Shown here: one piece after another, positions 2,170 to 18,600 of the stretch
How positions within the stretch are numbered: position 1 is the first letter of the stretch
Layout: every line of letters starts with the position of its first letter
The notes under the pieces: generated by a model
What the model was told of the DNA's origin: nothing
The model's input: the letters and a program-made list of their open reading frames with translations, nothing else
The model's database searches: none
Program-made: the position numbers and the translations under genes
Origin: Thermococcus henrietii
GTDB lineage: Archaea; Methanobacteriota_B; Thermococci; Thermococcales; Thermococcaceae
NCBI RefSeq assembly: GCF_900198835.1
Contig: NZ_LT900021.1
Span: 1,488,001-1,552,000 of the forward strand
DNA: 64,000 bases
Reading direction: 5' to 3'

Positions 2170-2207
2170 AACCTTTTTATTCGGAAAACCGAACTAAAAT
2201 CGGTGAT
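2170..2207 (+). promoter_or_regulatory. Promoter, palindrome and ribosome site of the diiron flavoprotein gene
   Basis: A TATA-like CCTTTTTATT at 2172-2180 is followed at once by a perfect dyad, TTCGG-AAAA-CCGAA, at 2180-2193, where a repressor could block transcription start. GGTGAT at 2202-2207 is the ribosome site and sits four bases before the ATG at 2212. No regulator is identified. Confidence 0.5.
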
Positions 2208-2211
2208 AGTC

Positions 2212-3441
2212 ATGGTGAAGGCCAGAGTTGAGAAGCTCTGCACCGACCCGGAGCTCTACATCATCAGGATTGACGATGATGAGATTAAGTACTTCGAGGC
2301 AACCTGGTACATCCCCGAGGGGATAACCTACAACGCCTATCTGATGAAGCTGAAGGACGCGGTTGTGCTCTTCGACACGACCAAGGCGGACTACGCCGAC
2401 CTGTTCCTCGAAAAGCTGAAGGAACTCGTGAATCCGGAGGAGATAACGCACATCATCGTCCACCACACCGAGCCGGACCACAGCGGGGCACTGCCAAAAG
2501 TTCTCAAGGCCAACAACTATAAAGCCCAGGTCATCGGAACGGCCTTCGCGAGGAACCTGCTCGAGGGCTTCTACGGAAAAGACGTCGTCAAGAACTTCAA
2601 GGTCGTTAAGGACGGCGAGGAGATGAGCATCGGCGGAAAGACCTTCCGCTTCATCACCGTCCCCTGGCTCCACTGGCCGGACACGATGATAACCTACGTC
2701 GTCGAGGACAAGCTGATATTCAGCTGTGACGCCGGCGGTGGCTACTCGATTCCCGAAACCATAGACGACAGCGACGAGGAGGTCGTTCAGCGCTATCTGC
2801 CTTACGTCACCAAGTACATCGTCACCGTCATCGGCCACTACCACAAGTACATCGTCCAGAACCTCAAGAAGCTCAAGAACCTCGGAATCGTTGACGATGC
2901 CAGGATGATTCTACCCGGGCACGGAATAGCGTGGTGCCACAATCCGAAGAGAATCTTCGAGTTCTACGAGCGCGTCGGGGCCGGCGTTCCCGAGAAGGAC
3001 AAGGTTCTCGTCGTCTACGACTCGATGTACGGCTTCGTCGAGCGGAGAATGGAGATAGTGCTCGACGAGCTTAAGAAGCTCGGAAAGAAGCCGGTAGTTT
3101 ACCGCTTCACCGACAGGGAGGCTCCCGCCGTCAGCGACATCCTCGGCGAGGTTCCGAGCGCGGAAGCCATCGTAATCGGTGCATCGACCTTTGAGGCTGA
3201 GATACACCCGCGCATACGCTATACGCTCTTCGAGATGCTCGACAAGGCCAACTACGAGAAGCCCGTCCTAATCGTCGGAGCGTACGGCTGGGGCGGAGTT
3301 GCAGGAAGGAAGATAGAGACGCTGATAACGAGGAGCAAGTTCGACCACGTAGCTACCGTCGAGAGCAAGGGAATGCCGACCGAGGAGGACGAGGCCAAAC
3401 TGAGGGAAGCCGTCAGGAAGCTCGTCGAGTGGGCCTCTTGA
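2212..3441 (+). CDS. fprA: A-type flavoprotein (diiron flavoprotein, FprA family)
   Basis: The 409-residue protein has a metallo-beta-lactamase-like diiron domain (about residues 30-250) and a C-terminal flavodoxin domain (about 260-405, starting VLVVYDSMYGFVE). The iron ligands are visible: H85-x-E87-x-D89-H90, then His in PWLHWPD, Asp in SCDAGGG, and His in VIGHYH. A-type flavoproteins reduce O2 to water, or NO to N2O, using electrons from rubredoxin or F420H2. The location beside rubrerythrin, rubredoxin and superoxide reductase supports a role in oxygen defence. I chose ATG 2212 because GGTGAT lies just upstream; a GTG at 2203 is part of that site. Confidence 0.92.
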   Translation: MVKARVEKLCTDPELYIIRIDDDEIKYFEATWYIPEGITYNAYLMKLKDAVVLFDTTKADYADLFLEKLKELVNPEEITHIIVHHTEPDHSGALPKVLKANNYKAQVIGTAFARNLLEGFYGKDVVKNFKVVKDGEEMSIGGKTFRFITVPWLHWPDTMITYVVEDKLIFSCDAGGGYSIPETIDDSDEEVVQRYLPYVTKYIVTVIGHYHKYIVQNLKKLKNLGIVDDARMILPGHGIAWCHNPKRIFEFYERVGAGVPEKDKVLVVYDSMYGFVERRMEIVLDELKKLGKKPVVYRFTDREAPAVSDILGEVPSAEAIVIGASTFEAEIHPRIRYTLFEMLDKANYEKPVLIVGAYGWGGVAGRKIETLITRSKFDHVATVESKGMPTEEDEAKLREAVRKLVEWAS

Positions 3442-3532: not shown

Positions 3533-3576
3533 TCGAAAAGTGTTATATACTTTCACTTCCATCTCAGTACGGTGTT
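3533..3576 (+). promoter_or_regulatory. Rubrerythrin promoter
   Basis: A BRE-like CGAAAAGTG at about 3535-3543 is followed by the TATA element GTTATATAC at 3541-3549, and GGTG at 3571-3574 is the ribosome site for the ATG at 3581. The gene therefore has its own promoter and is not simply read from fprA. Confidence 0.6.
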
Positions 3577-3580
3577 TTCC

Positions 3581-4096
3581 ATGCCCGTTGAGAGAGCTAT
3601 GACTAAGAAGTTTTTGGAGGACGCCTTCGCAGGCGAGAGCATGGCCCACATGAAGTACCTGATTTTTGCCGAGCAGGCCGAGAAGGAGGGCTTTCCGAAG
3701 GTTGCCAAGCTTTTTAGAGCGATAGCCTACGCGGAGTTCGTCCACGCGAAGAACCACTTCATAGCTTTGGGCAAGCTCGGAAAGACCGAGGAGAACCTGA
3801 AGGAGGCCATAGCGGGCGAGACCTTTGAGGTCGAGGAGATGTACCCCGTTTACAAGAACGCCGCCGAGTTCCAAGGTGAGAATGAGGCCGTCAGGAGCAC
3901 ACACTACGCCCTTGAGGCCGAGAAGCTCCACGCCGAGCTTTACGAGAAGGCCAAGGAGACGGTTGCGAAGGGCGAGGACATCGAGGTTAAGAAGGTCTAT
4001 ATCTGCCCGGTTTGCGGGTACACGGCGGTCGACGAGGCCCCGGAGCGCTGTCCCGTGTGCGGTCTGCCGGGCGAAAAGTTCGTGGTCTTTGAGTGA
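3581..4096 (+). CDS. rbr: Rubrerythrin
   Basis: The 171-residue protein has an N-terminal four-helix ferritin-like domain with two Glu/His-rich motifs (FAGESMAHMKY and EAEKLHAELY) that bind a diiron centre. It ends in a rubredoxin-like domain with CPVCGY and CPVCG supplying the FeS4 site. Rubrerythrin reduces hydrogen peroxide with electrons passed through rubredoxin. It sits between fprA and the rubredoxin/SOR pair. ATG 3581 is preferred to the GTG at 3572 because GGTG belongs to the ribosome site and the MPVERAMTKKFLEDAFAGES start is usual for the family. Confidence 0.95.
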   Translation: MPVERAMTKKFLEDAFAGESMAHMKYLIFAEQAEKEGFPKVAKLFRAIAYAEFVHAKNHFIALGKLGKTEENLKEAIAGETFEVEEMYPVYKNAAEFQGENEAVRSTHYALEAEKLHAELYEKAKETVAKGEDIEVKKVYICPVCGYTAVDEAPERCPVCGLPGEKFVVFE

Positions 4097-4337: not shown

Positions 4338-4347
4338 GGTGGTTGAG

Positions 4348-4695
4348 ATGCTGAGCGAAACGGTAAAGAGTGGAGACTGGAAGGGGGAGAAGCACGTCCC
4401 CGTTATAGAGTACGAGAAGGAGGGCGACCTCGTCAGGGTCGAGGTCAGCGTTGGCAAGGAGATACCGCACCCGAACACCCCGGAGCACCACATAGCGTGG
4501 ATTGAGCTCTACTTCCACCCCGAGGGGGAGAACTTCCCGATTCTCGTCGGCAGGGTTGCCTTCACCAACCACAGCGACCCGCTGACCGAGCCGAGGGCGG
4601 TCTTCTTCTTCAGGACGAGCAAGAAGGGCAAGCTCTACGCGCTCAGCTACTGCAACCTGCACGGCCTCTGGGAGAACGAGGTCGCGCTCGAGTGA
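4348..4695 (+). CDS. sor: Superoxide reductase (neelaredoxin type)
   Basis: The 115-residue protein reduces superoxide to hydrogen peroxide without making O2. The active-site ligands are visible: E14, H16, H41, H47, then C102 and H105 in YCNLHG. With ATG 4348 these positions match those of the Pyrococcus furiosus enzyme at E14/H16/H41/H47, which supports this start over GTG 4339. GAGGTGG lies upstream. It lacks the N-terminal desulforedoxin domain, so it is the 1-Fe type. It is co-transcribed with rubredoxin, its electron donor, and the peroxide would be removed by the adjacent rubrerythrin. Confidence 0.95.
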   Translation: MLSETVKSGDWKGEKHVPVIEYEKEGDLVRVEVSVGKEIPHPNTPEHHIAWIELYFHPEGENFPILVGRVAFTNHSDPLTEPRAVFFFRTSKKGKLYALSYCNLHGLWENEVALE

Positions 4696-6373: not shown

Positions 6374-6405
6374 CTGACCAGTCGAAGTGGGAATCGGTGA
6401 GGGAA

Positions 6406-6765
6406 ATGAAGGTTTACAGTCCGGATAGGGAGTGGCCCGAGCCATACAGGGCCGTGATTGAGGAGCTGAAGAAAATAACCGACCCGGTTACCGGTGGTGA
6501 CATCCTCGATTCCGGGGTTGTGGCGGGCCTTGAGGTCACGGACGACACGCTCAAAATCTGGCTTCGCTTTGAGAGCCACGCCGAGTACAACATAATAGGC
6601 GAGAGCCCCATAGCCTACTCCAAGATAATCGGCGATATAATGGAGCGCTTTGCCCTCGTTAAGTTCGACAACGTCTACGTCTACGACCTCGGCAACCACG
6701 TTGTTGGAAAGTTCGAGAACAGGAAGGGTTACAGGCCTGAAGACCTCTCCGAGGAGAAGGTTTGA
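6406..6765 (+). CDS. Small DUF59/MIP18-like protein, divergent
   Basis: This 119-residue protein carries a segment I(T)DPVTGGDILDSGVVAGL that resembles the 'D-P-E-x-x-x-I-x-x-x-G-L-V' signature of DUF59/MIP18 proteins, which help load iron-sulfur clusters. It lacks the catalytic-type Cys. It ends one base before the next gene, a clearer DUF59 protein, so both likely act together. ATG 6406 is preceded by GGTGAGG at 6396-6402; GTG 6397 is part of that site. The assignment to the family is by motif shape only. Confidence 0.7.
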   Translation: MKVYSPDREWPEPYRAVIEELKKITDPVTGGDILDSGVVAGLEVTDDTLKIWLRFESHAEYNIIGESPIAYSKIIGDIMERFALVKFDNVYVYDLGNHVVGKFENRKGYRPEDLSEEKV

Positions 6766-7116
6766 ATGCCCCTCCTGAACTTTTTAAGGCCCAAAAAGAG
6801 GCCGGAGCCGGGTCCGAGGAAGGACCTTCCCGGGGAAGTCAAGCGTGTTGTGAAGCTACTTGAAAGGGTTAGGGATCCGGAAACGGACTTAAACATCGTC
6901 GAGGAGGGCCTCGTCTACGGCCTCACCGTTGAAGGTGAGCGCGTCGAGGTCTTTCTCCTCATGGCCCGCTCCACGCCGGAGTGCCACGCCTGCCAGATGC
7001 TGGCGATAAACATCCAGAGGAGGATACTGGACGAGATAGTTTCGATTCTTAAAACGGAAGGATTTAATACCGTGAAGGTGTATAACGAACTCGGACTGCT
7101 TTTAGCGGAGGGATGA
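6766..7116 (+). CDS. DUF59/MIP18-family iron-sulfur assembly protein
   Basis: The 116-residue protein has a basic, proline-rich N-terminus and the DUF59 signature VRDPETDLNIVEEGLVYGL at about residues 35-54, followed by a Cys-x-x-Cys in ARSTPECHACQM. DUF59 (SufT/MIP18-like) proteins take part in Fe-S cluster delivery to target enzymes. The start codon directly follows the stop of the upstream paralogue-like gene, and a ferritin-like gene follows after 3 bases, so this is one operon handling iron. Confidence 0.8.
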   Translation: MPLLNFLRPKKRPEPGPRKDLPGEVKRVVKLLERVRDPETDLNIVEEGLVYGLTVEGERVEVFLLMARSTPECHACQMLAINIQRRILDEIVSILKTEGFNTVKVYNELGLLLAEG

Positions 7117-7119
7117 TGT

Positions 7120-7641
7120 ATGATAACTGAACTCGACGAGGGGCTTCCCCTCGAACGGATTAAGGACTTCTCGCTTGAGGAGCTCCTCGGAATGGCCATA
7201 AAGGCCGAAATCGGCGCGAGGGAGTTCTACGAGAGCTTGGCCGAGAGGGTTGAGATAGGGGAGCTAAAGGAGAAGGTGAGCTGGCTCGCCGGCGAGGAGA
7301 AGAAGCACGAGGAACTGCTGAGGAAGATTTACGCTGACTTCCTCCCCGGAAAAGAAGTGGTCTTTCCGAAGGAGCACATAGGACCGGAGCTCCAGCCCGT
7401 TGCCAGGAAGCTTGATAAAGTGGAAGACGTAATCGACCTAATCAGGTGGGCGATGAAGGCCGAGGAGATAGCGGCTAAGTTCTACGCCGAGCTTGAGAAC
7501 ATGGTTGAGGACGAGAGGAAGAAGAGGCTAATGCGCTACCTCAGCGACATGGAGTGGGGACATTACTACAACCTTAAAGCTGAATACGAGCTCCTCCCCG
7601 ATTGGGCGATGTACGACCAGATGATGCACGTCGGGCCTTAA
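7120..7641 (+). CDS. Ferritin-like (rubrerythrin-domain) diiron protein
   Basis: The 173-residue protein repeats the ferritin-like helix pattern: EIGAREFYESLAE with EEKKHEELLRK in the first half, and KAEEIAAKFYAEL with an Asp/Glu-His helix (MEWGHYYNLKAEYE) in the second. These supply carboxylate and His ligands for a diiron site. No rubredoxin domain is present. It probably stores or oxidises iron or removes peroxide. It is the last gene of the DUF59 operon, is preceded by GGAGGGAT, and is convergent with two more ferritin-like genes. Confidence 0.85.
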   Translation: MITELDEGLPLERIKDFSLEELLGMAIKAEIGAREFYESLAERVEIGELKEKVSWLAGEEKKHEELLRKIYADFLPGKEVVFPKEHIGPELQPVARKLDKVEDVIDLIRWAMKAEEIAAKFYAELENMVEDERKKRLMRYLSDMEWGHYYNLKAEYELLPDWAMYDQMMHVGP

Positions 7642-7671: not shown

Positions 7672-7974
7672 TCAAAGCTCCACCTTTATCCCCGTTTCTT
7701 CTTCAACCTCCTCAAAGCCCTCCTTCATGTACTTCGCGAGCTCCTCGTCAACGGCGAAGAGAACCGCCAGGAACTCTCCAAAGTGCTCCTTCTCCTCGTT
7801 GGCGACGTCGAGGAAGACATGCCTAATCTTTTCGTCTTCAATGTGCTCCGCCAACTGCTCGTAGAAACTTATCGCGTCGAGCTCGGCTTCTATGGCCCAG
7901 CGCAGAGCCTGGGCAATTTCTCTCTTCGTTAGAGGCCTGTCCTTCGGCAACTCAAACGGGTATTTAGCCAGCAT
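7672..7974 (-). CDS. Encapsulated-ferritin-like (EncFtn) diiron protein, free-standing
   Basis: The 100-residue protein matches the encapsulated ferritin family: AELDAISFYEQLAEH, then DEKIRHVFLDVANEEKEH, then GEFLAVLF. E31, E61 and H64 fall where EncFtn E32, E62 and H65 bind iron, and the length is that of the half-ferritin fold, which dimerises to build its ferroxidase site. In Pyrococcus this domain is fused to the encapsulin shell protein; here it stands alone and no shell gene is in the window. ATG 7974 follows a strong GGAGGTGAT site at 7978-7986. It is downstream of another ferritin-like gene on the same strand. Confidence 0.82.
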   Translation of the reverse strand: MLAKYPFELPKDRPLTKREIAQALRWAIEAELDAISFYEQLAEHIEDEKIRHVFLDVANEEKEHFGEFLAVLFAVDEELAKYMKEGFEEVEEETGIKVEL

Positions 7975-8019
7975 GGTATCACCTCCCATCAAACTCCCAG
8001 AATCCACAAAAGGAAAGCG

Positions 8020-8496
8020 TCAATCCACCTCAAGGCTGAAGTCCTGGTAGTCCATCCAGATGCCGGTCTTCATGACCGCGTCGTACTGCGCCTTGAGCAA
8101 CTCGTAGTGAGCCTTCTCTATCTTCGCCAGCTCCTCAAAGAGCCGTTTAACCGACTCGTGCATTGCTTCCTTCGCGGCCTTCTCGTAGAACTCCCACGTG
8201 AGCTTTTCCTGCTCCATTCCAATCCTCACGGCATCAACTTCACTTTCAATCTCCCCGGCCTTAACCAGGAGCTTTTCAAGGAGCTCTTCGCTCACAGCGG
8301 GAAGCCTGCACTCATCGGCAACGCGCTCAAGGAACTTCTCCTCGAACTCCGCCCAGTGGTCGGCCTCCTCCTTGGCCAGGAAAAGGAACATCTTTCTGGC
8401 CCTTTCGTCCTTAGTCCTCCTTGCAAGGTCGAGGTAAAAGCGCATCTCAGCTTTCTCAACCTCCAGGGCCAAAGCTAAAGCCTCAAGCTCGTCCAT
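8020..8496 (-). CDS. Ferritin-like diiron protein
   Basis: The 158-residue protein has two helix pairs with carboxylate/His iron ligands: LEVEKAEMRFYLDLARR with KEEADHWAEFEEKF, and MEQEKLTWEFYEKAAKE with KIEKAHYELLKAQYD. It is a rubrerythrin-domain protein without a rubredoxin tail and resembles the ferritin-like protein at 7120-7641. It lies 45 bases upstream of the EncFtn-like gene in the same direction and is divergent from the acetyltransferase gene. A role in iron or peroxide handling is likely. Confidence 0.83.
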   Translation of the reverse strand: MDELEALALALEVEKAEMRFYLDLARRTKDERARKMFLFLAKEEADHWAEFEEKFLERVADECRLPAVSEELLEKLLVKAGEIESEVDAVRIGMEQEKLTWEFYEKAAKEAMHESVKRLFEELAKIEKAHYELLKAQYDAVMKTGIWMDYQDFSLEVD

Positions 8497-10103: not shown

Positions 10104-10626
10104 GCCATTATTCTTTTCTCCAACTGCGTGTTACTGAAAAAGAGATTCGGCAAGCCTCCACGTAAATCCCGGAATAGGACAATTGTCTTTCCTGTTTTTT
10201 GAATTTCGTAGTCATCTCACCGCCAGTATCCCAAAACAGGCAGAGGAAAGGTTATGGCATCGGGGTTACCCTGCCCGTAGTAATTTTCCACAAAATGCAT
10301 ACGTTTGATAGTCCCAACTTTGGAGGCTCCCATTTTAAAAATTGGTCTCTGCAATTGGAGTTTAGATAGCAAAGAGAAGGTGTTTAATCGAGGATTTGAT
10401 TTCTGGCCGAGGATAGGTTTGAGACTTGCAAAATCCGGGTTTCGATTTTTAGAACGCACGTCTGGAGTGATTTTCTTGGCCAGCGAGGCAAAAAGCCCTA
10501 TCTCAGACCCCACCAGCTTTCGGGCCGGCTTTATAAATGAACTGCAGTGTTACCGGTCTGGCGAAGAAACCCTTAAATAGACCGATGTTATTAATCCTCT
10601 GAACGAATGAACGGAAAAAGTCCAGG
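10104..10626 (+). other. CRISPR array 1 leader
   Basis: About 520 bases without a convincing gene precede array 1. The last 100 bases are clearly homologous to the end of the array 2 leader: both share GGCTTTATAAATG, GCAGTGTTAC, GAAACCCTTAAATAG, a TTAATC element and a final ACGGAAAAAGTC directly before the first repeat. This marks the insertion end for new spacers and the transcription start side. Upstream of about 10520 the two leaders differ. Confidence 0.8.
10527..10582 (+). promoter_or_regulatory. Pre-crRNA promoter of array 1
   Basis: Two TATA-like elements occur: CTTTATAAATG at about 10529-10539 and CCTTAAATAG at 10571-10580, the second directly preceded by a BRE-like GAAAC. The second lies about 47 bases before the first repeat, so transcription should begin roughly 20-25 bases upstream of the array. 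Both elements are conserved in leader 2. Confidence 0.6.
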
Positions 10627-12339
10627 GTTTCCGTAGAACAGTGTTGTGTGGAAAGACGCTCTTGGGTGTATTGTTGCCCAGGCGTCGGGGGTTTCCGTAG
10701 AACAGTGTTGTGTGGAAAGCGTGGCTCTCTACAAGCTCCCGGGCGAGTCTGCTCCTCTTTACGTCACGTTTCCGTAGAACAGTGTTGTGTGGAAAGATAG
10801 CCCGTACTGGTTCCCTGATAAGACCTACACGTATGTTTCCGTAGAACAGTGTTGTGTGGAAAGAGTAAGTCCGCTCGCGTCGTCTATGCTGGCGATTTTC
10901 GTTTCCGTAGAACAGTGTTGTGTGGAAAGTGAGATGGCACGGCAGAGGGGACTTAAGACAGTCAGTTTCCGTAGAACAGTGTTGTGTGGAAAGAGGAGAT
11001 GCTTGAGCGCCTTCTCGTCCTCTATCGTCAGGTTTCCGTAGAACAGTGTTGTGTGGAAAGTTGAGGTAACCCTTTTGGAAACGTGGGTTAGGGGCTCGTT
11101 TCCGTAGAACAGTGTTGTGTGGAAAGTAGTCGTGCCCGGCGTATCCTTCGGCGCAACTTTGGACGCGGTTTCCGTAGAACAGTGTTGTGTGGAAAGACGC
11201 TCAACGCGTTTAAGGTCATCGCGTCCACCATACGTTTCCGTAGAACAGTGTTGTGTGGAAAGAGGAGAAACTACCCGAAGCGAACGTTACGCTAATAAAG
11301 TTTCCGTAGAACAGTGTTGTGTGGAAAGACTTTGCGGTTTTTTCTGGAGTGTCGAGCTCGGGGACTTCTTGTTTCCGTAGAACAGTGTTGTGTGGAAAGG
11401 AGTCGCCCCAGCGCGGAGCGTCGAAAGGCGACCCCGCAGTTTCCGTAGAACAGTGTTGTGTGGAAAGCAGGCTATTCTTCTCAGCACGTCCTGAGGAGTG
11501 GAGAGACGAAGTTTCCGTAGAACAGTGTTGTGTGGAAAGCAGTGTCCATTCCCAGCTTCTGGAGGCCCAACGTCGCGTTGTTTCCGTAGAACAGTGTTGT
11601 GTGGAAAGTGGAGTAGTCAGGCCATTAGTACACAAACATGAGAAGTTTCCGTAGAACAGTGTTGTGTGGAAAGACTTGACGGCTCAGCAGTGGGCGGTCG
11701 CGGTTGCGTTGACGAGGTTTCCGTAGAACAGTGTTGTGTGGAAAGGCAACCGCCCGGCGAGGAGCTTCACTTTTTTTCGAAGTTTCCGTAGAACAGTGTT
11801 GTGTGGAAAGAAAGCGGGCCGGAGCGGGCCGTTTTTCACTCAGCGCCTTCTAGTTTCCGTAGAACAGTGTTGTGTGGAAAGCCGTTTGGCCGACGCGATA
11901 GAGGAAAAATTAAGTAGGTTTCCGTAGAACAGTGTTGTGTGGAAAGCCGTTTGGCCGACGCGATAGAGGAAAAATTAAGTAGGTTTCCGTAGAACAGTGT
12001 TGTGTGGAAAGTCATCACGGCAAAGGACAACGCTACCAGCGCGATTAACCTGTTTCCGTAGAACAGTGTTGTGTGGAAAGTGGAGACAACACCCTGTTCC
12101 ATGGCCTGATGAATATTGTTTCCGTAGAACAGTGTTGTGTGGAAAGCAATGTTCCTCGTCGGCGTGCAGAAGTTCATGGAAAAGTTTCCGTAGAACAGTG
12201 TTGTGTGGAAAGATTGGGTTGTCTTTGTTGAAGCGAACTACTCTGTAGTTTTGTTTCCGTAGAACAGTGTTGTGTGGAAAGTAGAGAGAGCTGGCAGAGC
12301 GACCCCAGCATAACTGACCCTGGTTTCCGTAGAACAGTG
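10627..12339 (+). CRISPR. CRISPR array 1, 26 repeat units
   Basis: Twenty-five full 29-bp repeats (first 10627-10655, last 12253-12281) begin GTTTCCGTAGAACAGTGT and end TGTGGAAAG; a 26th unit at 12323-12339 keeps only the first 17 bases. Spacers are mostly 35-48 bases. The ends TTTCC and GGAAA are complementary, so the repeat RNA can fold weakly. The leader at 10104-10626 and the decayed last unit fix the direction as plus. Repeats ending in GAAAG give the 8-nt 5' tag GTGGAAAG after Cas6 cleavage. Two consecutive spacers, 11882-11917 and 11947-11982, are identical. Confidence 0.98.
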
Positions 12340-16295: not shown

Positions 16296-16514
16296 TTAGG
16301 GCTTTTTGTTCTTTGTCTCCCCTGTTTTCTCAGTTTAGGGTTACTATGCCAGTTACGGGGAATTTAGAGTCTGAGAGCAGAATTTTGAATTCCAACGAGA
16401 CGGTGATTTTAGGCTGACCTAATTTATCTCTCGGAACCCCTTCTGGAATGAAACGCCTTTAAATCCAGGACGGGGCTTTTGGTGGGGAGTTTGAACCCCT
16501 GAGCGGTGATGCAA

Positions 16515-16558
16515 ACGGCTTAAACCCAAAAATTTTTGAAAATTGCGGGTTAAGCCGT
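16515..16558. other. Inverted repeat (hairpin) upstream of array 2
   Basis: The arms ACGGCTTAAACCC (16515-16527) and GGGTTAAGCCGT (16547-16558) pair over 12 bp with one bulged A; the loop is A/T-rich and contains AAAAATTTTT. It could be a terminator, a protein-binding site for spacer acquisition or a structured leader RNA. No equivalent was seen in leader 1. Confidence 0.6.
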
Positions 16559-16694
16559 CTTCACGGGGTTTCGATTCTTTTAATGGTATATTGACCCAAG
16601 AACCACCCAGCATACCGTAAAACGGCGGTTGAGATTGCTTTAAAAATTCCGGGTCGGCTTTATAAATGGAGTGCAGTGTTACGGGCCCGATGGA

Positions 16695-16709
16695 GAAACC
16701 CTTAAATAG
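16695..16709 (+). promoter_or_regulatory. Pre-crRNA promoter of array 2
   Basis: BRE-like GAAAC followed by the TATA element CCTTAAATAG lies 47 bases before the first repeat, at the same distance as in leader 1. A second TATA-like CTTTATAAATGG lies at about 16658-16669. Confidence 0.6.
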
Positions 16710-16755
16710 ACGAATGTCGTTAATCTTTTGAAAGAACGGACGGAAAAAGTCAAAA

Positions 16756-18600
16756 GTTTCTGTAGAACAGAGTTGTGTGGAAAGCAAAAGGGCCGGGGTT
16801 GAGTTGTGGTTATATCCCGAAGGTTTCTGTAGAACAGAGTTGTGTGGAAAGCGAAGATACTCCAAAGGAGACAATTGCCCGTAAACTGTGTTTCTGTAGA
16901 ACAGAGTTGTGTGGAAAGGGGTTCATCTCGCTAATTTTGTCGGGTGGGTAGTAGGGTTTCTGTAGAACAGAGTTGTGTGGAAAGACATAGAAGCCGAGCC
17001 AGCGCCTGTCCTTGCGCTTCGTGGTTTCTGTAGAACAGAGTTGTGTGGAAAGTGTTCATGTCAAGTTCGATCACATAATCGCCATTTTCATGTTTCTGTA
17101 GAACAGAGTTGTGTGGAAAGTGCGGAGGACTTGTACGCGTTGATTCCGCTTGATGATGCAATGTTTCTGTAGAACAGAGTTGTGTGGAAAGCTTTTTCCC
17201 CGTCTTCGCTTTGCTCTTTGACGTGAATAGCCAAGTTTCTGTAGAACAGAGTTGTGTGGAAAGGCATTCCTGAGAACACTATCTATGAGCTCACCTTCAC
17301 GTTTCTGTAGAACAGAGTTGTGTGGAAAGATCCTCCTCGAGGGCGACGATGGAAAGCACTACGTCGGTTTCTGTAGAACAGAGTTGTGTGGAAAGCGTTT
17401 CTAACCTTCGGCGCGTGGTTCTGCGCGCTTTGAAGGTTTCTGTAGAACAGAGTTGTGTGGAAAGAGGAAGTGTACATCTATGAAGGTAGGCGCTGGTGGA
17501 CTTAGTTTCTGTAGAACAGAGTTGTGTGGAAAGCGGGATTTGCTTACGGCGCTGGAGAGGTTGAAAGCGTCCGTTTCTGTAGAACAGAGTTGTGTGGAAA
17601 GTGTGGCCAATGATCTTTTGTGCCATTTCTGCTTCTTTTGTTTCTGTAGAACAGAGTTGTGTGGAAAGTTTAACTCCCTCTGGAAGCTTCTTCCACAGTA
17701 TCTCCCTGTTTCTGTAGAACAGAGTTGTGTGGAAAGGGCTCTTCAGCAAAACCGAACCAATCAGGCGCTCCTTTTTCGCGTTTCTGTAGAACAGAGTTGT
17801 GTGGAAAGGCCTTATGCCTTCCCGGTTTCGGGCTTCGGGCATGAACGTGTTTCTGTAGAACAGAGTTGTGTGGAAAGATGGTGATGTAGCCCTTTCCGTT
17901 GAAGCCAATGAAAGTTTCTGTAGAACAGAGTTGTGTGGAAAGCGCTTGGGCGCTGGTTTGTCAGGGTCCTCATGGGTGCCTCTGTTTCTGTAGAACAGAG
18001 TTGTGTGGAAAGTCAGTGGGAGTATTGCGACTGCTTCAGCGGCTTCAGTGCTGTTTCTGTAGAACAGAGTTGTGTGGAAAGTACTTCTGAAGTCCATTCT
18101 TCTCACCCCAAGATTCCCTGTTTCTGTAGAACAGAGTTGTGTGGAAAGGAAACGCTGAGATTGACTATCATGTGCAGACTACCTCGTTTCTGTAGAACAG
18201 AGTTGTGTGGAAAGGCCAGGAGCTGGAATATTTTCATGTATGGGGCCAGCTGTTTCTGTAGAACAGAGTTGTGTGGAAAGAGCGGGCTGGTCTCGTTGTA
18301 AAGCATGGCCCTGTTACCGCCGTTTCTGTAGAACAGAGTTGTGTGGAAAGTCGCGGTATTTTGGTTCAAGATAGCGTGGCCTATCATGTTTCTGTAGAAC
18401 AGAGTTGTGTGGAAAGGAGTCAGGCCAAAAGGTAGCTGTAGGCCCCCATTTAAGTTTCTGTAGAACAGAGTTGTGTGGAAGGTCAGTCCCCGCAACGAAC
18501 TCCTTAGAATAAACCGACTCGGTTTCCGTAGAACAGAGTTGTGTGGAAAGAGGATTTGTATTTCCAATAGAATCTAAAGAGAATACGGTTTCCGTAGAAC
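16756..18600 (+). CRISPR. CRISPR array 2, 28 repeat units
   Basis: The 29-bp repeat begins GTTTCTGTAGAACAGAGT and ends TGTGGAAAG, differing from array 1 at two positions (C to T at base 6, T to A at base 17). There are 27 full or nearly full units (first 16756-16784) and a 13-bp remnant at 18588-18600. Decay is at the right end: the unit at 18454 has lost one A (ends GTGGAAGG), and the units at 18522 and 18588 have the array 1-type GTTTCC start. Spacers are about 36-40 bases. The leader is on the left, so transcription is plus. It sits between cas5 and cas1. Confidence 0.98.

What the first reader, a model, noticed from the sequence alone, without database searches (positions are those of the whole stretch)
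7672..7974. Free-standing encapsulated ferritin without a shell gene nearby
The 100-residue protein keeps the EncFtn iron ligands (E31, E61, H64). In Pyrococcus the same domain is fused to encapsulin. Here it is encoded alone with two further ferritin-like genes next to it and a third type across the operon, and no encapsulin gene is in the window. It either loads into a shell encoded elsewhere or acts without a shell. Its C-terminus (GIKVEL) does not look like a known targeting peptide.
Basis: partly seen in the sequence, partly recalled or inferred. Interest (0 to 1): 0.55.

Follow-up and report, generated by a model that had tools for sequence, protein, structure and literature searches.

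The report
Shell-less encapsulated-ferritin protein
This small iron-binding protein is a close relative of one normally locked inside virus-like encapsulin shells, but its genome, like most in its archaeal order, has no such shell gene, so it probably works free in the cell beside superoxide and peroxide defence enzymes.

Summary
Confirmed: window 7672-7974 (minus strand) encodes a 100-aa EncFtn-family protein. Its di-iron residues E31, Y38, E61 and H64 are intact, and its AlphaFold2 monomer best matches P. furiosus EncFtn domain 5n5e. The complete genome has no match to the Family 1 or Family 2 shell models, so loading into a shell encoded elsewhere is very unlikely. This is not exceptional. 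Of 94 genomes of the order, all 74 good-quality ones carry EncFtn, but only 9 of those 74 (10 of 94) carry the shell, always fused to EncFtn, never beside a separate full copy. The tree rejects one clade of fused proteins and one clade of Thermococcales solo proteins. In one close pair the shell is replaced by about 170 bp holding a 19-bp shell remnant, indicating shell loss. Tail-less solo relatives occur in other archaea and bacteria; 44 of 44 such genomes tested had no shell match, and in six of 68 loci the gene lies directly upstream of superoxide reductase. Most likely it is a shell-free ferroxidase or peroxide-consuming di-iron protein of oxidative-stress defence. Oligomer, chemistry and iron acceptor are untested.

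The parts
7672..7974 (-). Solo (shell-less) EncFtn-family protein, 100 aa
   Evidence: PF22277 28.8 bits (cut-off 27); NF058679 EncB_fam 4e-20 but below its cut-off; PDB 5n5e E 5.8e-26; AF2 mean pLDDT 93.6, Foldseek best hit 5n5e TM 0.87/0.88
7978..7986 (-). Shine-Dalgarno GGAGGTGAT, supporting the ATG start at 7974
   Evidence: sequence
8020..8496 (-). Flp3 (my label), ferritin-like/rubrerythrin-domain protein ending 45 nt upstream on the same strand; probable operon partner
   Evidence: PF02915 4.2e-14; upstream on the same strand within 4.5 kb in 61 of 74 solo and 10 of 10 fused Thermococcales loci, directly adjacent in 28 of 74 and 0 of 10
7120..7641 (+). Second ferritin-like protein, homologue of P. 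furiosus 2fzf, convergent with EncFtn
   Evidence: PF02915 8.9e-30; convergent within 4 kb in 42 of 74 solo and 2 of 10 fused loci
6397..7116 (+). Two FeS_assembly_P proteins (6397-6765 and 6766-7116)
   Evidence: PF01883 4.1e-06 and 1.4e-09
4339..4695 (+). Superoxide reductase (desulfoferrodoxin family)
   Evidence: PF01880 9.1e-35, TIGR00332 2e-33
3572..4096 (+). Rubrerythrin with C-terminal rubredoxin-like domain
   Evidence: PF02915 1.1e-27, PF21349 1e-10
2203..3441 (+). Flavodiiron protein (FprA-type)
   Evidence: PF19583 6.4e-21, PF00258 1.4e-06

Best explanation
A shell-less EncFtn: homologous to the N-terminal ferroxidase domain of archaeal fusion encapsulins, encoded alone and working in the cytosol. 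SHOWN by computation: family, monomer fold, di-iron residues, purifying selection, no match to Family 1 or 2 shell models in this genome, solo form as the majority state of the order, one shell deletion that left a scar. INFERRED: it assembles the EncFtn two-subunit ferroxidase site (probably the D5 decamer), oxidises Fe(II) with O2 or, more likely in this presumed anaerobe, with H2O2 made by superoxide reductase, and so limits Fenton chemistry. A free EncFtn ring is not expected to store the product, so Fe(III) would pass to another acceptor; a classical ferritin gene 1.6 kb left of the window is a candidate. Evolution (inferred): one EncFtn-shell fusion, then repeated loss of the shell, and separately of the Dps-like and Fur genes often found beside it, while EncFtn was kept.
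For: PF04454: 0 matches in the own genome, 10 of 94 in the order, 9 of 74 good genomes. Window protein: strong match in 85 of 94 genomes and 74 of 74 good ones, none with a full solo and a fused copy. Ligands invariant 158 of 158; median pairwise dN/dS 0.08 over 841 usable pairs of 100-aa solos beginning MLA. Fused proteins as one clade rejected (p-AU 3.7e-10); all Thermococcales solos as one clade rejected (p 2.4e-7). G075 fused versus G079 solo: 96.5% and 87.9% identical DNA on either side, shell replaced by about 170 bp with a 19-bp exact shell remnant, longest match 14 in 5,388 control windows. Outside the order: of 50 genomes searched for PF04454 the 6 fused ones match and 44 of 44 solo ones do not; in 6 of 68 solo loci SOR starts 21-129 nt downstream on the same strand, and SOR counts are 7 within 1 kb versus 0 at 3-6 kb. 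Ferritin PF00210 3.3e-45 beside the window. PMC5012862 (passages): R. rubrum EncFtn is a ferroxidase that cannot mineralise iron without its shell.
Against: No test of oligomer, activity or expression. Free R. rubrum EncFtn precipitated and aggregated with iron, so a useful shell-free ferroxidase needs an acceptor that is not identified; some solo genomes such as G019 and G033 have no PF00210 match at 1e-20 and no Dps-like match at 1e-15. In 52 of 68 outside solo loci none of the nine redox/ferritin queries matched within 3 kb, though many flanks are short; flavodiiron genes show no fall with distance (1 within 1 kb, 1 at 3-4 kb). SOR, rubrerythrin or FeS1 lie within 6.5 kb in 54 of 74 solo but only 3 of 10 fused Thermococcales loci, so the fused and solo loci share mainly Flp3. 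Joining the main solo clade with L117 (p 0.125) or L121/L122 (p 0.0585) is not rejected, so the number of losses inside Thermococcales is uncertain. Shell gain by recombination or transfer in some lineages is not excluded.
Confidence: 0.68

Rival explanations
1. It is functionally a rubrerythrin-like peroxidase: the di-iron site reduces H2O2 with electrons from rubredoxin or ferredoxin, and iron is a fixed cofactor, not a substrate.
For: In the window it sits with SOR, rubrerythrin and flavodiiron genes; PF02915 matches at 9.3e-08; some outside relatives lie near SOR, rubrerythrin and peroxiredoxin.
Against: The best family and structure matches are EncFtn/EncC/EncB proteins; no rubredoxin domain; the characterised R. 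rubrum member is a ferroxidase.
Confidence: 0.22
2. It is cargo of an encapsulin encoded elsewhere in this genome.
For: Kinship to fusion-encapsulin cargo domains.
Against: One-contig genome, 99.96% complete: PF04454 0, PF19307 0, fused profile matches only the EncFtn part; no targeting peptide. Caveats: Family 3 and phage-capsid models were not searched, and PF19307 found only one weak hit in the tool's control genomes.
Confidence: 0.02
3. The two Family 4 A-domain proteins (ENCP4) of this genome provide a compartment for it.
For: Two ENCP4 genes present.
Against: They lie at genome positions 0.22 and 0.53 Mb, the EncFtn gene at 1.50 Mb; PMC8346489 (passages) describes them as about one third of an HK97 protein and ties them to hydrogenase, OsmC, GAPDH and DeoC operons.
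Confidence: 0.03
4. The solo form is ancestral and shells were captured several times by recombination or transfer, rather than lost.
For: The sister group of 64 outside rows is entirely solo; fused genes of two genomes of the window's genus (G047, G068) group with one of genus g2 (support 99 and 100/99), which suggests transfer. Scars were not found at L122, L123 or L117.
Against: Shell remnant in the solo G079 locus; domain and shell identities co-vary over 16 fused proteins (Mantel r 0.82, 0 of 2000 permutations), as for one fused unit.
Confidence: 0.2
5. A decaying relic of a lost encapsulin system.
For: Shell, Dps-like and Fur genes are missing here although present at many related loci.
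Against: Present in 74 of 74 good genomes, dN/dS 0.08, ligands invariant.
Confidence: 0.02

Closest known systems
P. furiosus fusion encapsulin, EncFtn domain PFC_05175 (PDB 5n5e, 2e0z; locus tag PF1192 recalled)
   Same: Same domain (53% identity in the Foldseek alignment, TM 0.87/0.88), same ligands; fused relatives in the order share the upstream Flp3 gene
   Different: No shell domain; the protein stops at the linker start; residue 63 (Rru E64) is E here and in 70 of 74 Thermococcales solos but A in 10 of 10 Thermococcales fused proteins
Bacterial EncFtn cargo with targeting peptide (R. rubrum Rru_A0973, H. ochraceum, M. xanthus EncB/EncC)
   Same: EncFtn fold and E/E/H site; EncC, EncB and Rru_A0973 are hits
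   Different: No targeting peptide and no shell; below the NCBIfam cut-offs for EncB_fam and TIGR04535
s-FLP class (Nitrosomonas europaea NE0167, PDB 3k6c; Eren et al. 2024, PMC11202242)
   Same: Short EncFtn without targeting peptide, initially classed as non-encapsulated (section 5 read)
   Different: Only 20% identical in the Foldseek alignment; the review calls s-FLPs predominantly bacterial, whereas the nearest relatives here are archaeal and intermixed with fusion encapsulins
P. furiosus 2fzf-like ferritin-like proteins
   Same: Ferritin-like helices; a homologue is encoded at 7120-7641
   Different: About 175 residues with two separate matching stretches; 28% identity in the Foldseek alignment

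Membership tests
EncFtn-like (Pfam PF22277) | Profile score over the gathering cut-off | tested here: met
   28.8 bits versus 27; 54 of 54 aligned relatives match at E<=0.001
EncFtn-like (Pfam PF22277) | Ferroxidase residues E, Y and ExxH | tested here: met
   E31, Y38, E61, H64 invariant in 158 of 158
EncFtn-like (Pfam PF22277) | Two long helices plus a shorter C-terminal helix | tested here: met
   AF2 mean pLDDT 93.6, helices 17-43, 48-75, 77-94; best PDB match 5n5e
EncFtn-like (Pfam PF22277) | D5 decamer with the di-iron site across two subunits | not testable with these tools
   only monomers were predicted
EncFtn-like (Pfam PF22277) | Ferroxidase activity | not testable with these tools
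   needs protein
Encapsulin cargo (Family 1 EncFtn) | Encapsulin shell gene in the genome | tested here: not met
   PF04454 and PF19307 no match; fused profile matches only the EncFtn part
Encapsulin cargo (Family 1 EncFtn) | C-terminal targeting peptide or fusion to the shell | tested here: not met
   protein ends GIKVEL; compared by eye with the peptides in PMC11202242 Table 2
NCBIfam EncB_fam (NF058679) and TIGR04535 | Score over the curated cut-off | tested here: not met
   72 versus 90 bits; 54.2 versus 125 bits
Rubrerythrin (PF02915) | Full-length domain | tested here: not met
   33 bits, over the cut-off of 22.8, but only profile positions 3-73 of 137

The most novel reading that the evidence does not exclude
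'Encapsulated ferritin' is, in archaea and many uncultured bacteria, mainly a free cytosolic protein: in Thermococcales a core, shell-independent gene, elsewhere repeatedly paired with superoxide reductase, that handles Fe(II) and peroxide. The virus-derived shell is an optional add-on that lineages drop again and again. (Changed on checking: I no longer include a re-tuned outer rim in this reading, because the E63 signature is confined to the main Thermococcales solo clade; 66 of 68 outside shell-less relatives lack it.
Probability: 0.4. Interest if true: 0.68.

Novelty: new variant of a known kind. Interest (0 to 1): 0.5.

Why it matters
EncFtn is known as a protein that needs its shell: PMC5012862 states that it must be housed within encapsulin for iron storage (passages). 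A widespread, selectively maintained shell-less state, with close fused and unfused relatives, offers a natural comparison for what the shell contributes and what EncFtn does without it. It also suggests that surveys keyed on the shell undercount the family. I found no report of shell-less archaeal EncFtn among the listings of ten searches of the held library (open-licence PMC papers only), of which I opened three papers; subscription papers such as He et al. 2019 (seen only as a reference) were not read.

Tried and rejected
Shell encoded elsewhere: rejected (Family 3 and phage-capsid models not searched). Family 4 ENCP4 as shell: judged unlikely. Shell remnants beside the other solo genes: tblastn with ten shells found nothing below E 0.2 in the loci without a fused gene; a DNA remnant was found at L121 only, not at L122, L123 or L117, and the remaining solo loci were not compared at DNA level for remnants beyond the pairs. 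Ferritin as compensation for shell loss: not supported; PF00210 (E<=1e-20, which also counts Dps-like genes) is found in 71 of 94 genomes, with and without shells. Dps-like gene upstream: 9 of 10 fused (one of them, G077, in two partial pieces) versus 30 of 74 solo loci, Fisher p 0.005; genomes are related, so only a hint. A residue signature of being shell-less: rejected; E63 is found in 70 of 74 Thermococcales solos, but the other four (L117, L121, L122, L123) have A, and 66 of 68 outside solos lack it. Single origin of the solo state in Thermococcales: rejected overall, but two smaller merges, chosen after seeing the tree, are not.

Trees used representatives: 104 rows (30 of 84 readable Thermococcales rows), 49 rows (40 in-group and 9 of the 64 outer solos). 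The interrupted copy of G062 (L074) was dropped from trees and residue counts; three outside proteins (L149, L183, L203) were trimmed at the N-terminus. Control windows were read on the stored strand only.

Full report
THE OBSERVATION. The ORF at 7672-7974 lies on the minus strand and encodes 100 residues. Its ATG at 7974 is preceded by GGAGGTGAT (7986-7978); a longer GTG start at 8007 (111 aa) is less likely. Pfam gives PF22277 EncFtn-like (28.8 bits, cut-off 27) and part of PF02915. NCBIfam gives EncB_fam 4e-20 and TIGR04535 1.3e-14, both below their curated cut-offs. The closest solved structures by sequence are the P. furiosus EncFtn domain 5n5e (5.8e-26) and the fused virus-like particle 2e0z (2.8e-25). 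The AlphaFold2 monomer (mean pLDDT 93.6) finds 5n5e first (TM 0.87/0.88, 53% identity), then EncC, NE0167 and Rru_A0973.

SURROUNDINGS. A ferritin-like protein, labelled Flp3 here (8020-8496), ends 45 nt upstream on the same strand and is probably co-transcribed. A 2fzf-like ferritin-like gene (7120-7641) is convergent. Farther along lie two FeS-assembly genes, superoxide reductase, rubrerythrin and a flavodiiron gene. A classical ferritin (PF00210, 3.3e-45) lies at genome position 1486021-1486425, 1.6 kb left of the window.

NO SHELL MATCH IN THIS GENOME. G000 is one contig of 2,155,760 bases, 99.96% complete. PF04454 (Family 1 shell) has 0 matches, while the same search rings in three control genomes. 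PF19307 (SrpI-like, Family 2) has 0 at E<=10, though its control rang only once and weakly. A profile of five fused encapsulins matches this gene over positions 1-101 of 346 and other ferritin-like genes within the same part; nothing matches the shell part. Family 3 and phage-capsid models were not searched. Two Family 4 A-domain genes (PF08967) exist elsewhere; Andreas and Giessen 2021 (PMC8346489, passages) describe such proteins as truncated to about 100 aa and present in all sequenced Pyrococcus and Thermococcus genomes.

THE SOLO FORM IS THE RULE. In the order (94 genomes held), PF04454 is found in 10, and in 9 of 74 good genomes. The window protein matches in 87 of 94 at the tool's threshold and in 74 of 74 good genomes; two of the 87 (G051, G053) are only weak rubrerythrin-like hits, leaving 85. 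In the 10 shell genomes the match lies inside the fused gene (345-346 aa by my start choice); in 74 it is a solo protein of 99-114 aa; in 1 (G062, draft) the copy is interrupted. No genome had a full solo and a fused copy; G091 has an extra 35-residue fragment. The seven genomes without a match are all under 90% complete.

RELATED LOCI. Flp3 lies upstream on the same strand within 4.5 kb in 61 of 74 solo and 10 of 10 fused loci. The rest of the neighbourhood is less shared: the 2fzf-like gene is convergent within 4 kb in 42 of 74 and 2 of 10, and SOR, rubrerythrin or FeS1 lie within 6.5 kb in 54 of 74 and 3 of 10. A Dps-like gene lies just upstream of EncFtn in 9 of 10 fused and 30 of 74 solo loci, a Fur-family gene upstream in 10 of 10 and 30 of 74. 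The window locus lacks both, and its genome has no Dps-like hit at 1e-15.

SHELL LOSS. On a tree of 49 rows all 16 fused proteins, the 20 Thermococcales solos included and four outside solos form one clade (100/99); fused and solo states need seven changes; fused as one clade is rejected (p-AU 3.7e-10), as are all Thermococcales solos as one clade (p 2.4e-7). The main solo clade joined with L117 (p 0.125) or with L121/L122 (p 0.0585) is not rejected, so the number of events is open. The clearest case is G075 (fused, L120) against G079 (solo, L121): DNA identity 96.5% upstream, 89.8% over EncFtn, 87.9% downstream, with the shell missing from the solo locus. The roughly 170 bp in its place hold a 19-bp exact match to the shell gene in the expected order; 5,388 control windows of the same size reached at most 14. 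No such remnant was found at L122, L123 or L117. The same pair also differs by the Dps-like/Fur stretch upstream of EncFtn, missing in G079 and G084. Domain and shell identities co-vary over 16 fused proteins (Mantel r 0.82, 0 of 2000 permutations as high). I infer one fusion and repeated shell loss, with some transfer: the fused genes of G047 and G068, of the window's genus group, group with that of G001 of another genus group.

BEYOND THE ORDER. A profile scan of genome contigs kept the best 80 of 371 loci. Seventy-four lie outside Thermococcales by their titles: 6 fused (Archaeoglobi, Pyrodictiaceae, Fervidicoccus, Desulfurococcales) and 68 solo, 88-100 aa apart from three longer readings, without targeting tails by eye; titles include Bathyarchaeota, Woesearchaeota, Aenigmatarchaeota, Thermoplasmata, Lokiarchaeota, Nitrospirae, Deltaproteobacteria and Patescibacteria. 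Of the 73 genomes, 50 were searched for PF04454: the 6 fused ones matched, 44 of 44 solo ones did not (completeness unstated). With nine redox/ferritin queries, 16 of 68 solo loci have a match within 3 kb (SOR 10, peroxiredoxin 8, rubrerythrin 7, flavodiiron 4, Fur 1), and none of the 6 fused loci does. SOR counts fall from 7 within 1 kb (131 kb of sequence) to 0 at 3-6 kb (278 kb); peroxiredoxin falls from 7 within 1 kb to 2 beyond 3 kb and rubrerythrin from 4 to 1; flavodiiron does not fall. In six loci SOR lies 21-129 nt downstream on the same strand (L157, L160, L167, L174, L186, L199; two of them Thermoplasmatota). This is the best functional lead, but it concerns a minority of loci.

SELECTION AND RESIDUES. 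E31, Y38, E61 and H64 are invariant in 158 of 158 aligned proteins; median pairwise dN/dS is 0.08 over 841 usable pairs of the 100-aa solos beginning MLA, and 0.035 over 8 fused pairs. N59 (69 of 74), E63 (70), L79 (70) and Y82 (64) mark most Thermococcales solos and are found in 0 of 10 fused proteins. Residue 63 corresponds to Rru Glu64; Eren et al. 2024 (PMC11202242; section 5 and part 1 of section 7 read) place it in an outer 'C-prime' pocket and state that archaeal fusion forms have A or T there. But 66 of 68 outside shell-less solos also lack E63, and so do L117, L121, L122 and L123 (sequences). It is therefore a signature of the main solo clade, not of being shell-less.

MECHANISM. Known: free R. 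rubrum EncFtn oxidises Fe(II) but does not mineralise it and aggregates with iron (PMC5012862, passages including parts of the abstract). Here, then, it should act as a ferroxidase or peroxide sink rather than a store. With SOR in the cell making H2O2, peroxide-driven Fe(II) oxidation is the most economical reading, with Fe(III) handed to an acceptor such as the nearby ferritin. Not shown: oligomer, oxidant, acceptor. Some solo genomes (G019, G033) have neither PF00210 at 1e-20 nor a Dps-like gene at 1e-15, so ferritin cannot be the general acceptor. A rubrerythrin-like peroxidase role is the main rival.

NOVELTY. Short tail-less EncFtns are known as s-FLP, described as predominantly bacterial and initially classed as non-encapsulated (PMC11202242). 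In the listings of ten searches of open-licence papers I saw no report of shell-less archaeal EncFtn, shell loss, or EncFtn-SOR operons; the SOR-encapsulin search returned 0 papers. I rate it a new variant of a known kind.

Noticed in passing
window 10624-12281 and 16419-18567: A CRISPR array with repeat GTTTCCGTAGAACAGTGTTGTGTGGAAAG; two adjacent repeat-spacer units (11853-11917 and 11918-11982) are identical, a duplicated spacer. A second array seems to lie at 16419-18567, seen only as repeat-encoded ORFs; the genes between look cas-like (recalled, not searched).
   Followed up: partly
G000:C1:217882-218118 and 530964-531236: Two Family 4 A-domain (ENCP4) encapsulin-like genes in the same genome.
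   Followed up: partly
L157, L160, L167, L174, L186, L199: Solo EncFtn genes directly upstream (21-129 nt, same strand) of superoxide reductase in several archaeal groups and a Patescibacteria bacterium.
   Followed up: partly
G077:C1:1123268-1123812 and G080:C1:1701417-1701581: The Dps-like gene upstream of the fused encapsulin looks broken or truncated (two partial matches in G077, one short match in G080).
   Followed up: no
L074 (G062): The EncFtn copy is interrupted near its start in a draft assembly; assembly error or pseudogene not decided.
   Followed up: no
upstream of EncFtn in L090, L112, L113, L120 versus the window, L121, L122: A Fur-family regulator plus a Dps-like gene sit between Flp3 and EncFtn in many loci and are both absent in others, including the window.
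   Followed up: partly
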